From Liolophura sinensis (lineage: Eukaryota > Mollusca > Polyplacophora > Chitonida > Chitonidae), in assembly GCF_032854445.1 (NCBI RefSeq), contig NC_088304.1, positions 34,092,810 through 34,156,809 on the forward strand: a stretch of DNA of 64,000 bases, given 5' to 3'. A program made the translations under genes and the position numbers. This document shows positions 46,301-55,300 of this stretch, one piece after another. The stretch's first letter is position 1. Every line of letters begins with the position of its first letter. Below the pieces are notes generated by a model. The model was given only the letters and a program-made list of their open reading frames with translations, had not been told where the DNA came from and did not search any database.

Positions 46301-49300
46301 AACGAATGAATCGTTCAGTGAGTTCCTGACATACCTGTACCAAGTCAAACGAATGAATTGCTCAGTGAGTTTCTAAAATACATGTGTACTTGTACCAAGT
46401 CAATCGAATGAATTGTTCAGTGAGTTTCTAACATACATGTGTACTTGTACCAAGTCAAAGGAGTGAATCGCTCAGTTAGTTCCGTCCAGCATGTAACTCA
46501 CAATTTTGCACTGTTGCAGGTTATCTAACCCCAACAGCAGTATCACCTCTGCCTCAGGCCTCATCCAGAGCATCCTGAAGGAAGGGGAGATAACCAAGCT
46601 TAGGGAGGAGGAGCAGTGCAGGATCTGTAGTATCTTGTGTACAGCTGAGTACTGTATGGAGACGACGCAACAGCTGGAGGAGAAACTCCGGGAGAAAGTC
46701 GACCCCGAGCTTGCTGGCCAGATCGACCTCAATGCCGAACAGGACATGTTCCATAAGTATGAGCTTTGTTACCTGCGCTGTTAAGCTGGTTGCCCTGAAG
46801 GGGACAAATACACTAGTGCTGACCTAAATGTGGCTGCTCAGCTTTATTGTCAAGGTGGAGTGAAGCGTAAACAGATTTATGCAACATTTAAACTTGGATT
46901 ATTATTTACAAATTGTCAAATACAATGGAAAGGCCTTCATGGCCGGGTTGGTTAGAGGGTCAGCGCAGTGCAATTAACCAGGAGCCTCTCAGCATTGCAT
47001 TCACCGTGAGTTCAAGTCCCATGCGCTCTGCCCAGTTTCCTCCCACTGTGATGCTGGCTGCTGTTGTATAAGTTAAATATTCTTGAGTACGGCGTAAAAC
47101 ATCAATCAAGTAAAAACAGATAAAGTCTAATACATTAGGAACATCCCAATCCTGATCCTTTTCTAATGTAATAATATAAATATAAACTGTAATATGCTGT
47201 AATTTGGAGCTAGATATATGTTTACATGAAAAAATCCAACTACCACAATCTGTTGATGTCAGTGTTGTGTAACTGTTAACCCATTTGTTGATGTTAGTGT
47301 GATGTCTGTGTATACCAGAATTTGTACTTTTCATAGAGGATATTGCACAGTGAATGTTGAATAACATAAATATTGTTCGAGTGAGAGGTGGAAATAATAA
47401 CGAGACGCGAAACATTGAGTGGGTTATCATTTCTACCTTTCAAGAGAACAATATTTGTAATATTTAACCTTCACTGTGCAATATTCCATTTATTATTTAT
47501 GTCCTGACATTTTCTCCATATGTATATAAATGCCTATTAGTTTATCTGTTGCATCGGTGAAAAAAATAAGCAATCTGCTTTGCCATCTGCGTCATATTTC
47601 TGATTCGATTCATACCCGCTGCAATTTCGTTCACGTCCGCGCTCACAAACCCGTTTTACAGTTTTAAACACTGTCTGTAGGTAATTAAGCATTCTACGAA
47701 GGTGCTTAATGCTAATGGAATATAAGTATTAGGCCGTGGGTCATGGGTCAAGGTCTTTAGCAGTGTAATAGCAAAATGTAATAACAAAAGTGATATCTAA
47801 CCAGTGAAGATATCATTTTTATCAGTGTAGGAAATACTGGGATTTCACTGATGTATATATAATAATATGTGATATCTAACTGCACCACAATTTGTCCACT
47901 TCAGTGTAATATCTAACTGTATTCAGCTGATGGTACAGGACCTGGAGACAGCTTGTGAACCAGCCCTCAATGCCATGATGAAGGTAAGAAGCCTATAGTG
48001 TAATATCTAACTGTATTCAGCTGATGGTACAGGATCTGGAGACAGCTTGTGAACCAGCCCTCAATGCCATGATGAAGGTAAGAAGCCTATAGTGTAATAT
48101 CTAACTGTATTCAGCTGATGGTACAGGACCTGGAGACAGCTTGTGAACCAGCCCTCAATGCCATGATGAAGGTAAGAAGCCTATAGTGTAATATCTGACT
48201 GTATTCAGCTGATGGTACAGGACCTGGAGACAGCTTGTGAACCAGCCCTCAATGCCATGATGAAGGTAAGAAGCCTATAGTGTAATATCTAACTGTATTC
48301 AGCTGATGGTACAGGACCTGGAGACAGCTTGTGAACCAGCCCTCAATGCCATGATGAAGGTAAGAAGCCTATAGTGTAATATCTAACTGTATTCAACTGA
48401 TGGTACAGGACCTGGAGACAGCCTGTGAACCAGCCCTCAATGCCATGATGAAGGTAAGAAGCCTATAGTGTAATATCTAACTGTATTCAACTGATGGTAC
48501 AGGACCTGGAGACAGCCTGTGACCCAGCCCTCAATGCCATGATGAAGGTAAGAAGCCTATAGTGTAATATCTAACTGTATTCAGCTGATGGTACAGGACC
48601 TGGAGACAGCCTGTGAACCAGCCCTCAATGCCATGATGAAGGTAAGAAGCCTATAGTGTAATATCTAACTGTATTCAGCTGATGGTACAGGACCTGGAGA
48701 CAGCTTGTGACCCAGCCCTCAATGCCATGATGAAGGTAAGAAGCCTATAGTGTAATATCTAACTGTATTCAACTGATGGTACAGGACCTGGAGACAGCCT
48801 GTGACCCAGCCCTCAATGCCATGATGAAGGTAAGAAGCCTATAGTGTAATATCTAACTGTATTCAACTGATGGTACAGGACCTGGAGACAGCCTGTGACC
48901 CAGCCCTCAATGCCATGATGAAGGTAAGAAGCCTAAAGTGTAATATCTAACTGTATTCAGCTGATGGTACAGGACCTGGAGACAGCCTGTGAACCAGCCC
49001 TCAATGCCATGACGAAGGTAAGAAGCCTATAGTGTAATATCTAACTGTATTCAGCTGATGGTACAGGACCTGGAGACAGCCTGTGAACCAGCCCTCAATG
49101 CCATGATGAAGGTAAGAAGCCTATAATGTAATATCTAACTGTATTCAACTGATGGTACAGGACCTGGAGACAGCTTGTGACCCAGCCCTCAATGCCATGA
49201 CGAAGGTAAGAAGCCTATAGTGTAATATCTAACTGTATTCAGCTGATGGTACAGGACCTGGAGACAGCCTGTGAACCAGCCCTCAATGCCATGATGAAGG

Positions 49301-52300: not shown

Positions 52301-55300
52301 GAAGGTAAGAAGCCTATAGTGTAATATCTAACTGTATTCAGCTGATGGTACAGGACCTGGAGATAGCCTGTGAACCAGCCCTCAATGCCATGATGAAGGT
52401 AAGAAGCCTATAGTGTAATGTCTAACTGTATTCACACTTTATTGCCAATTTTGAACAGTAAAACATGTATAGACGTTGGTAATTACACTGTATTGCCAAT
52501 TTTGAACAGTAAAACATGTAAAGACGTGGGTAATTACACTTTATTGCCCATTTTGAACAGTAAAACATGTATAGACGTGGGTAATTACACTGTATTGCCC
52601 ATTTTGAACAGTAAAACATGTATAGACGTGGGTAATTACACTGTATTGCCAATTTTGAACAGTAAAACATGTATAGACGTGGGTAATTACACTGTATTGC
52701 CAATTTTGAACAGTAAAACATGTATAGACGTGGGTAATTACACTGTATTGCCAATTTTGAAACATAAAACATGTATAGACGAAGGTAATTATGCTTTATT
52801 ACCAATTTTGAACAGTAAAACATGTATAGACGAAGGTAATCATCCTTTATTGCCAATTTTGAACAGTAAAACATGTATAGACGAAGGTAATCATCCTTTA
52901 TTGCCAATTTTGAACAGTAAAACATGTATAGACGAAGGTAATCATCCTTTATTGCCAATTTTGAACAGTAAAACATGTATAGACGAAGGTAATCATCCTT
53001 TATTACCAATTTTGAACAGTAAAACATGTATAGACGAAGGTAATCATCCTTTATTGCCAATTTTGAACAGTAAAACATGTATAGACAAAGGTAATTACAC
53101 TTTATTACAATTTTGAACAGTAAAAGATGTATAGACAAAGGAAATTATTTGGGAGTTAAAAAAGAATAGTAAAAATTCAAAGGGATTTGCGCTGATCGAT
53201 TTTCTGCAGAAAATATGTGGTATAGCCTGTTGAAGAAATGTGAAACATACAATCCACCATGCAGTGTCAATCTTATCTTGGAATTGTGACATATGACATG
53301 TGAAACCTCACATATTTGCCACAGCGTGCCATGAAGTGACAAAATAATGGGCATCCTGACTCTTCATGATGATGGGATCATGATGGGGATCATGACTCTG
53401 TTGTTCCAGCGTAATTTGGGAATGGATTATTGACCCTCCTACCCTCTTGTCTTTGTTTTCAGATGCCGTGGTCAACAGTGGAGGCCGTGGGAGACCAGAG
53501 TGGATATGTGACAGCCATCATTTCTCATCTAAAGCACAACCTCCCACTCATTAGGGACAATCTTGTGTCCTCTCGGAAATACTTCACCCAATTCTGTGTC
53601 AAGTTTGCCAAGTGAGTAAAATACTTCACTCAGTTTTGAGTCAAGTTTGCCAAGTGAGCTTTGTTTGTAAAATACTTCATCCAGACCTGTGTCAGTTGGA
53701 CAAGTGAGTTCTGTGTGTAAAATTCTTCACCCATTTCTGTGTCAAGTTTGACAAGTGAGTCCGATATGTAAAATACTCACCCAGTTCTGTGTCAGTTTGA
53801 CAAGTGAGTCCCACATGTAAAATACTCACCCAGTTCTATGTCAGTTGGACAAGTGAGTCCCATATGTAAAATACTCAACCAGTTCTGTGTTAGTTGGACA
53901 AGTGAGTTCTGGTTGTAAAATTCTCATCCAGTTCTGTGTCAGTTTGACAAGTGAGTCCCATATGTAAAATACTCACCCAGTTCTGTGTCAGTTGGACAAG
54001 TGAGTTCTGGTTGTAAAATTCTCATCCAGTTCTGTGTCAGTTTGACAAGTGAGTCCCACATGTAAAATACTCACCCAGTTCTGTGTCAGTTGGACAAGTG
54101 AGTTCTGGTTGTAAAATACTCAACCAGTTCTGTGTCAGTTGGACAAGTGAGTTCTGGTTGTAACATACTTCATGTAACTGTTCTGTGTCAAATTTTCAAA
54201 CTTTCCAAGAAAGTTCAGTTTTTAAGAAGCTTCCCCCTGATTTTACCGAGGGGGTTCTCTTTGTGAAATTCATGTACACATTACTTCACTCAGATTTAAA
54301 TCAAGTTTCACCTACATGTATGTAATTTGCATGCGTCATTACGTTTCAGCACCTTCATTCCAAAGTTCATCAATCACTTGTTCAGGTGTAAGCCAATCAG
54401 CACAGTAGCAGCTGAGCAGGTGAGTTGGCAATAAAGGTACTTCCCTGGACATTTGCATTGTATAACATTCGTTGAAGACCACTTGTCCTCAATCAGTATG
54501 CCATATCTGTATGTCTGAAGTAAGAAAGTTCATCAGTAATTCACCAAAGGTCAGTGGTTTACCCCAGACACTCCACTTGATTCCTCCACCCATAAAACTG
54601 CCTCCCATCTCATAGGTGAAAAGTTCTTGAATCCATCTTTGAACTCCAATCAAACAAATAAATGCATTTCCAAATTAGTTTGCGTTTGTGTATGATAACT
54701 GTTAGCATACCCGGATATGAGGTAATATTAGAGTACCTTAGAGGCCGAGGTGCTTAGCACGCCATCCTCTCACCAGTGTGGTCACTGTGAGTTCAAGTCC
54801 AGTACATGCTGGCTTCCTCTCCGGTTGCACGTGGGAAGGTCTGGCAACAACCTGCGGATAGTGATGGGTTTCTTCCTGGCTGTGCCCGGTTTCCTCCCAC
54901 CATACTGCTGGCCACTGTCATATAAGTGAAATATTCCTACGTACAGCGTAAAACACCAATCAAATAAATAAACCAGTAGTGTTCCCTGTTGTTGTTGTTG
55001 TGCTCCTCAGCTGTTGCTGGACACTCACTCCCTGAAGACAGTGCTGTTGGACTTACCCTCAGTTGGATCACATGTCACACGTAAACCTCCTGCCAGGTAT
55101 GTTCTCATATCCTCAAGTAATCTGATTTTCAGCCAGATTAACCCTAAATCTGCCTGCCATTCATATGCCATCCACACTGAGCTATCTTTGAGGAGGAAAA
55201 TCAAATGTGTAACATTTATGCAAAGTTTATTGGTAACTTGTCAAAGTCAGCTGATTTGCTGCCTGCTTAAGTGAAGCATTCTTGATTTGATTTGATTTGA

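What the first reader, a model, noticed from the sequence alone, without database searches (positions are those of the whole stretch)
47905..52434. A VPS53 exon amplified into 48 tandem copies, each with its own splice sites
Seen directly: the 79-nt exon 14 of VPS53 is repeated 48 times at a 94-bp period with a 15-nt spacer, GTAAGAAGCCTATAG. The spacer begins with a consensus donor and ends with AG. Every copy I read keeps AAG/GTAAG, while exon positions vary. Known: alternative-exon arrays exist (for example Dscam), but their members are separated by real introns. An array of this density with sub-intron spacers inside a housekeeping trafficking gene is, as far as I know, undescribed. Inference: it is either a minisatellite that captured an exon or a substrate for one-of-many exon choice.
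Basis: partly seen in the sequence, partly recalled or inferred. Interest (0 to 1): 0.96.

Follow-up and report, generated by a model that had tools for sequence, protein, structure and literature searches.

The report
Exon and splice-donor repeat array
In what appears to be a chiton, one small exon of a housekeeping gene has been copied 48 times in a row together with its splice donor site; most likely only the first copy is used and the rest is a silent repeat, one of a kind known from amphioxus.

Summary
The array is real: 48 copies of a 79-nt VPS53 exon, 94-bp period, 15-nt spacers, 47905-52398 plus a 21-nt partial copy to 52434. The window lies in a 609-Mb mollusc assembly, apparently the chiton Liolophura.

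'Each with its own splice sites, one-of-many choice' is not supported. All 48 copies keep a strong donor, but only copy 1 has a normal acceptor; the other 47 have an AG 7 nt upstream, few pyrimidines, and score below all 16 comparison acceptors of the gene. Exactly one copy fits the frame: 45 of 48 singles stay open, 0 of 1128 pairs and 0 of 17296 triples do. Variable sites look neutral, 3 synonymous to 10 non-synonymous.

Best reading: copy 1 is the exon; copies 2-48 are an intronic exon-plus-donor minisatellite, like amphioxus 'mirages' but with a whole exon in the unit. The same gene holds an older one at exon 15, and an ankyrin gene another. Tandem donor motifs are 2.8 times as frequent genome-wide as the reversed motif, while single motifs are 1.06 times. 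No RNA or reads were examined.

The parts
46520..46756 (+). VPS53 exon before the array (about exon 13); ends in phase 2 (..CAT AA)
   Evidence: tblastn; acceptor and donor positions; frame check
46757..47904 (+). intron 13 (1148 nt); its 3' end has a CTAAC motif (by eye, branch-point-like), a pyrimidine-rich stretch and no other AG for 74 nt: the only normal acceptor of the array
47905..47983 (+). array copy 1: the copy most likely used as the VPS53 exon (79 nt)
   Evidence: acceptor score 3.56 and pyrimidine fraction 0.65, against -4.17 or lower and 0.30 in copies 2-48
47999..52398 (+). array copies 2-48: exon plus donor, 15-nt spacers, no credible acceptor
52399..52434 (+). last donor and spacer, and a partial 49th copy (21 nt of exon, one mismatch)
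52434..53147 (+). adjoining array, 51-bp period, 14 copies; no clear exon origin
53463..53611 (+). next VPS53 exon (about exon 15)
53577..54169 (+). second, more diverged exon-donor array: last ~35 nt of exon 15 plus GTGAGT, 49-bp period; 12 GTGAG[T/C] sites 42-51 bp apart, the first being the real donor
   Evidence: alignment score 58 against a best shuffled score of 25; unit listing
36106..57797 (+). VPS53 coding part seen (first exon or exons not found)
   Evidence: the C-terminal 319-aa query matches only this locus in the assembly

Best explanation
It is an exon-plus-donor minisatellite. A segment starting at the acceptor AG and holding the whole 79-nt exon and the first 13 nt of the next intron was duplicated in tandem, then expanded and homogenised by block duplication. 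Because the unit lacks a polypyrimidine tract and a clean AG, added copies bring a donor but no acceptor. The spliceosome defines the exon from the intron 13 acceptor to the nearest donor (copy 1); copies 2-48 leave with intron 14. Shown: the array, the donors, the poor acceptors of copies 2-48, the frame rule, variation of neutral look, block structure, one VPS53 locus in the assembly. Inferred: use of copy 1, and the filter that only units without an acceptor can grow inside an essential gene.
For: Only copy 1 has a normal acceptor; copies 2-48 score -4.17 to -10.19 against -3.0 to 16.0 for 16 other acceptors of the gene (those scored leave-one-out). Use of two or three copies, retention of a spacer (tested for copies 1-2) or skipping gives a stop; one copy is open in 45 of 48 cases. 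3 synonymous to 10 non-synonymous variable sites among the 45 full-length copies, near the 23-28% synonymous expected without selection; 3 of 48 copies are frameshifted. Repeated runs of unit types (26-31 = 37-42; 0 of 2000 shuffles reach 6) show block duplication. Mean difference between 45 units 2.6%. A second exon-donor array lies at the next exon of the same gene and one in an ankyrin gene at C1:829.9 kb. The C-terminal VPS53 query finds no second locus, so the array is probably compatible with a working gene.
Against: No RNA was examined. The acceptor matrix rests on 16 sites of one gene, and copy 1 scores above only 4 of those 16. The 48 donors score alike, so mis-splicing to donors 2 or 3 is possible. 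Three other VPS53 exons show apparent single-base frame changes, which leaves doubt whether this allele is intact or the bases exact. 13 variable sites are few for a test of selection.
Confidence: 0.8

Rival explanations
1. One-of-many exon choice: the 48 copies are mutually exclusive exons, spacers too short to splice enforce exclusion, and the mRNA population carries many VPS53 variants.
For: The frame allows exactly one copy, as in many mutually exclusive exon sets (PMC5740500, passages). A 15-nt spacer is too short to be an intron (recalled knowledge). 45 of 48 copies are usable in frame.
Against: Copies 2-48 have no credible acceptor; variation looks neutral; no antisense, docking-site-like match to the unit above shuffles in intron 13 (87 of 200 shuffles reach it) or the tail of intron 14 (155 of 200; G-U pairs not counted).
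Confidence: 0.06
2. The array has a selected regulatory role: 47 extra donors act as a U1 sink, or compete with the real donor and send part of the transcripts to nonsense-mediated decay, so that copy number tunes VPS53 output.
For: All 48 donors keep the same score, 11.92; use of a later donor from the first acceptor would include a stop.
Against: Constancy of the 8-nt donor core is expected by chance in 0.23 of cases; donor-bearing arrays occur elsewhere in the genome; nothing here shows an effect on expression.
Confidence: 0.08
3. Assembly error: one or a few copies were inflated to 48.
For: No reads could be inspected; coverage of the matching published assembly is about 14x; the mitochondrial contig looks like a concatemer, so tandem chaining does occur in this assembly.
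Against: 23 distinct unit types in a structured order; mean HiFi read 8,347 bp exceeds the array.
Confidence: 0.06

Closest known systems
'Mirage' minisatellites of amphioxus (Adh3; globins BflGb6 and BflGb9), as described in PMC3087553 (passages seen)
   Same: Tandem repeats that span an exon-intron boundary inside a gene; many units keep AG/GT signals; units of 10-160 bp; concerted turnover.
   Different: Here the unit holds a whole internal exon; 48 copies against 6 and 3 in the two BflGb6 haplotypes; a mollusc; two such arrays in one gene and a third in another gene, with the donor motif enriched in tandem arrays genome-wide.
Mutually exclusive exon arrays (Dscam type)
   Same: Many tandem exon copies of which exactly one fits the reading frame.
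   Different: No introns between copies (15 nt), no credible acceptors of their own, neutral-looking variation, nearly identical products.
Earthworm metallothionein exon-4 duplications (PMC12783039, passages)
   Different: The passages describe duplications and inversions of exons, not a minisatellite of exon plus donor.

Membership tests
Mirage minisatellite | tandem repeat unit spans an exon-intron boundary | tested here: met
   unit = AG + exon 79 nt + 13 nt intron; exon-15 array likewise
Mirage minisatellite | many units keep splice signals | tested here: met
   48 of 48 donors; exon-15 array: 12 GTGAG[T/C] sites found by that motif, 42-51 bp apart, so no unit between them lacks it
Mirage minisatellite | regular splicing of the mRNA not disturbed | not testable with these tools
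   no RNA data held
Mirage minisatellite | length instability between individuals or cells | not testable with these tools
   one assembly; only internal block duplication seen
Mirage minisatellite | reported from cephalochordates (taxonomic, not structural) | tested here: not met
   mollusc: 8 haemocyanin beta-sandwich domains in one 11-kb cluster; contig lengths point to Liolophura
Mutually exclusive exon array | each member has its own functional acceptor and donor | tested here: not met
   47 of 48 acceptors score below all 16 comparison sites; sequence scores only, no RNA
Mutually exclusive exon array | frame or spacing excludes joint use | tested here: met
   0 of 1128 pairs and 0 of 17296 triples open; larger sets not tested
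Mutually exclusive exon array | members under coding selection | tested here: not met
   3 synonymous: 10 non-synonymous sites among 45 copies; 3 of 48 copies frameshifted
Mutually exclusive exon array | members seen in transcripts | not testable with these tools
   no RNA data held

The most novel reading that the evidence does not exclude
In this chiton, 5' splice sites are hot spots where minisatellites are born. Some process at exon-intron junctions (for instance transcription-coupled slippage or repair) duplicates exon end plus donor again and again, leaving several hundred donor-bearing arrays of unrelated sequence; only units without an acceptor survive in essential genes. The VPS53 array is the extreme case, with a whole exon in the unit, and shows a route to ready-made exon arrays and new introns.
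Probability: 0.35. Interest if true: 0.82.

Novelty: new variant of a known kind. Interest (0 to 1): 0.6.

Why it matters
If the genome-wide pattern holds, splice donors are a preferred birthplace of tandem repeats in a mollusc, which would make two questions testable: how a gene tolerates dozens of identical competing donors, and whether exon arrays and new introns start as such repeats. The VPS53 case also gives a clean natural test of donor choice, since 48 identical donors follow one acceptor and the outcome can be read as a 94-nt ladder in cDNA.

Tried and rejected
PDB search with a joined VPS53 fragment: no hit up to E = 1. Pfam on three single exons: none. Rfam on the window at gathering scores: none. 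Scan of viral contigs with a 22-nt junction: none. Exon origin of nine arrays of the window: only the 53616 array stands far above shuffles (58 against 25); four others exceed the best of their 20 shuffles by 1-3 points and are taken as chance; four do not. Donor motifs in arrays of an evenly spaced 190-kb sample (19 stretches of C1 and C2; 20 asked, one lay past the contig end): AGGTRAG in 1 of 27 arrays (140 of 500 base shuffles reach that), GTRAGT in 4 of 27 (22 of 500); in the window GTRAGT in 4 of 12 (0 of 500); too small to decide. Amphioxus as source was considered because of the mirages and rejected. Counter-example kept: six loci were read. L032 is a clear exon end (ankyrin). L039 looks like a coding antistasin repeat in which AGGTGAGT merely encodes residues. 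L038 is plausible but without a Pfam match. L043 and L044 are unresolved. L030 has a single AGGTRAGT and no such array.
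Full report
Observation. The array is present as described. TRF reports 47903-52434, period 94, 48.2 copies. Splitting on the spacer gives 48 exon copies, 45 of 79 nt and 3 of 78 nt (copies 18, 23, 33), with the spacer GTAAGAAGCCTATAG in 46 of 48; a 21-nt partial copy with one mismatch ends at 52434. A query made of the first two units finds 21 matches in the whole assembly, all within this array (the tool counts repeats as lower bounds).

Gene and source. tblastn with a human VPS53 protein recalled from memory places exons from 36.1 to 57.8 kb on the + strand in order. 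Pfam gives Vps53_N (7e-67) and VPS53_C (6.2e-24) for the spliced pieces. A search of the whole assembly with the C-terminal 319 residues finds 51 matches, all in this locus; the N-terminal part was not searched. The assembly has 609,464,459 bases in 632 contigs. C1 (96,433,062) and C2 (28,395,274) equal two scaffolds of the chiton assembly published as Liolophura japonica, which also has 632 scaffolds (PMC11068029, passages seen). C10 (36,632,598) differs by about 5.4 kb from the nearest scaffold shown there (36,638,032), and the total by about 31 kb, so this may be another version. Its authors corrected the species to L. sinensis (PMC12441733, whole text). Eight molluscan haemocyanin domains in one 11-kb cluster agree with a mollusc.

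Splice anatomy. A donor matrix and an acceptor matrix were built from 16 donors and 16 acceptors of this gene, leaving out the array exon; two further acceptors and one donor were not pinned down and are missing. All 48 array donors score 11.92, above 14 of the 16. Copy 1's acceptor scores 3.56, inside the range of the 16 (-3.0 to 16.0) but above only four of them, with pyrimidine fraction 0.65 (others 0.55-0.85) and no AG for 74 nt (others 20-53). Copies 2-48 score -4.17 (40), -4.47 (5), -7.34 (1) and -10.19 (1), with pyrimidine fraction 0.30 and an AG 7 nt upstream in all 47. The periodic stretch begins at the acceptor AG itself, so the unit carries the exon and a donor but nothing of intron 13 upstream of AG.

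Frame. Exon 13 ends in phase 2 and exon 15 starts in phase 0. With one copy the frame stays open through exon 15 for 45 of 48 copies; the other three are the 78-nt copies. Skipping gives a stop at codon 16; retaining the first spacer gives a stop in it; 0 of 1128 pairs and 0 of 17296 triples are open; larger sets were not tested. So the mRNA needs exactly one copy, and the anatomy points to copy 1.

Variation. Among the 45 full-length copies there are 13 variable exon sites, 3 synonymous and 10 non-synonymous, against 23-28% synonymous expected without selection; the three frameshifted copies were left out of this count. The spacer has 2 variable sites of 15. The order of the 23 unit types holds a repeated run of six (26-31 and 37-42) and a run of three seen three times; none of 2000 shuffles reaches six. 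Mean pairwise difference of the 45 units is 2.6%. This is how minisatellites turn over, and there is no sign that copies 2-48 are kept as coding exons.

A second array in the same gene. Right after exon 15 (donor at 53612) lies an array of period 49 whose unit is the last ~35 nt of that exon plus GTGAGT; it scores 58 against a best shuffled 25. Twelve GTGAG[T/C] sites lie 42-51 bp apart from 53612 to 54147. Its units match less well (84%, against 97%), which suggests an older case of the same process.

Genome-wide counts. Three AGGTRAGT at 60-90 bp spacing match 3245 times, both strands, in the assembly. The other motifs counted the same way gave: reversed motif 1152; AGATRAGT 576 and its reverse 876; AGGCRAGT 207 and its reverse 209 (half of that motif holds CpG); the acceptor-like TTTYCAGG 707 and its reverse 165. 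At 30-59 bp spacing the donor motif gives 2115 against 1113 reversed. Single AGGTRAGT sites are only 1.06 times as common as the reversed motif (50,967 against 47,888). In 254 kb of held sequence, outside arrays, singles number 19 for AGGTRAGT, 25 reversed, 12 for AGATRAGT and 11 for AGGCRAGT, so the last two are rarer motifs and weaker controls. The acceptor-like motif is enriched over its reverse as well; its single-site count was not measured.

Arrays rather than matches. In the first 5.27 Mb of C1, where the list ends, I count 20 donor clusters against 2 reversed, 2 AGATRAGT and 1 AGGCRAGT (positions typed from the listings). This stretch is not typical: it holds about 100 donor matches where the genome mean predicts 28. 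The listed part holds 20 clusters in about 100 matches over 51.6 Mb, the same number of matches per cluster, so scaling gives roughly 650 donor arrays against 230 reversed in this spacing range. The fair contrast is therefore about 2.8-fold, not ten-fold; I lowered the novel case from a draft 0.40 to 0.35 for that reason. The donor arrays printed have different unit sequences, so they are not one repeat family.

How sound is the genome-wide claim. Five donor arrays were read. L032 (C1:829.9 kb) is a clear case: an open frame with ankyrin repeats (Ank_4, 2.3e-9) runs into a GTGAGT, and its last bases with the donor follow about 15 times. L039 goes against it: its 81-bp unit stays open and matches an antistasin domain (4.7e-6), so AGGTGAGT there is probably coding. 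L038 is plausible without a Pfam match; L043 and L044 are unresolved. A 190-kb sample was too small to decide. I hold genome-wide birth at donors as possible, not shown.

Comparison. PMC3087553 (passages) describes 'mirages' in amphioxus: minisatellite-like duplications of intron-exon boundaries, many units with AG/GT signals, no interference with regular splicing by RT-PCR, length instability, and a proposed path to intron gain. The original report (Canestro 2002) is not held and was not read. The present array works like a mirage; it differs by holding a whole exon, by copy number and by phylum. It fails two defining features of mutually exclusive exon arrays. Nine paper searches on the subject listed no report of such an array in a mollusc or in VPS53, and a chiton genome comparison (PMC12005716) holds neither 'minisatellite' nor 'tandem repeat' in its main text. 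Human VPS53 is reported to hold a divergent intronic VNTR (PMC13308034, passages); nothing links the two.

Verdict. A real, striking array in which copies 2-48 most likely have no function. Its value lies in the pattern it may belong to and in the clean test of donor choice that it offers.

Noticed in passing
38365-38483, ~39478-39623, ~43880-44141: Three VPS53 exons show an apparent single-base frame change against the conserved protein. Either base errors in the assembly or a damaged allele.
   Followed up: partly
G000 contig C99: COX1 matches recur about every 15.5 kb, seven in all: the mitochondrial genome appears to be assembled as a tandem concatemer.
   Followed up: no
47865-47882: Just upstream of the real acceptor, intron 13 holds a stretch resembling the exon start (TGTGATATCTAACTG); 4 of 200 shuffles reach its score. 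Could be a trace of the first duplication, or chance.
   Followed up: partly
44742-46483: 157-bp tandem array near the end of the intron before exon 13, with CAGTGAGTT in most sub-units by eye; no exon origin found.
   Followed up: partly
52434-53147: 51-bp array directly abutting the exon array; its consensus unit holds GAAGGTAATT, donor-like.
   Followed up: partly
L039 (G000:C1:1308995-1312164): About 19 copies of an 81-bp unit that reads as an antistasin-type cysteine-rich repeat in an open frame.
   Followed up: partly
6971-8086 and 10717-11604, - strand: Long open frames, the first with many C2H2 zinc-finger motifs by eye.
   Followed up: no
whole assembly: Minisatellites are frequent (27 arrays of period 20 or more and 3 or more copies in a 190-kb sample), while the genome paper's class with simple repeats is 0.08% and unclassified repeats 14.04%.
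   Followed up: partly
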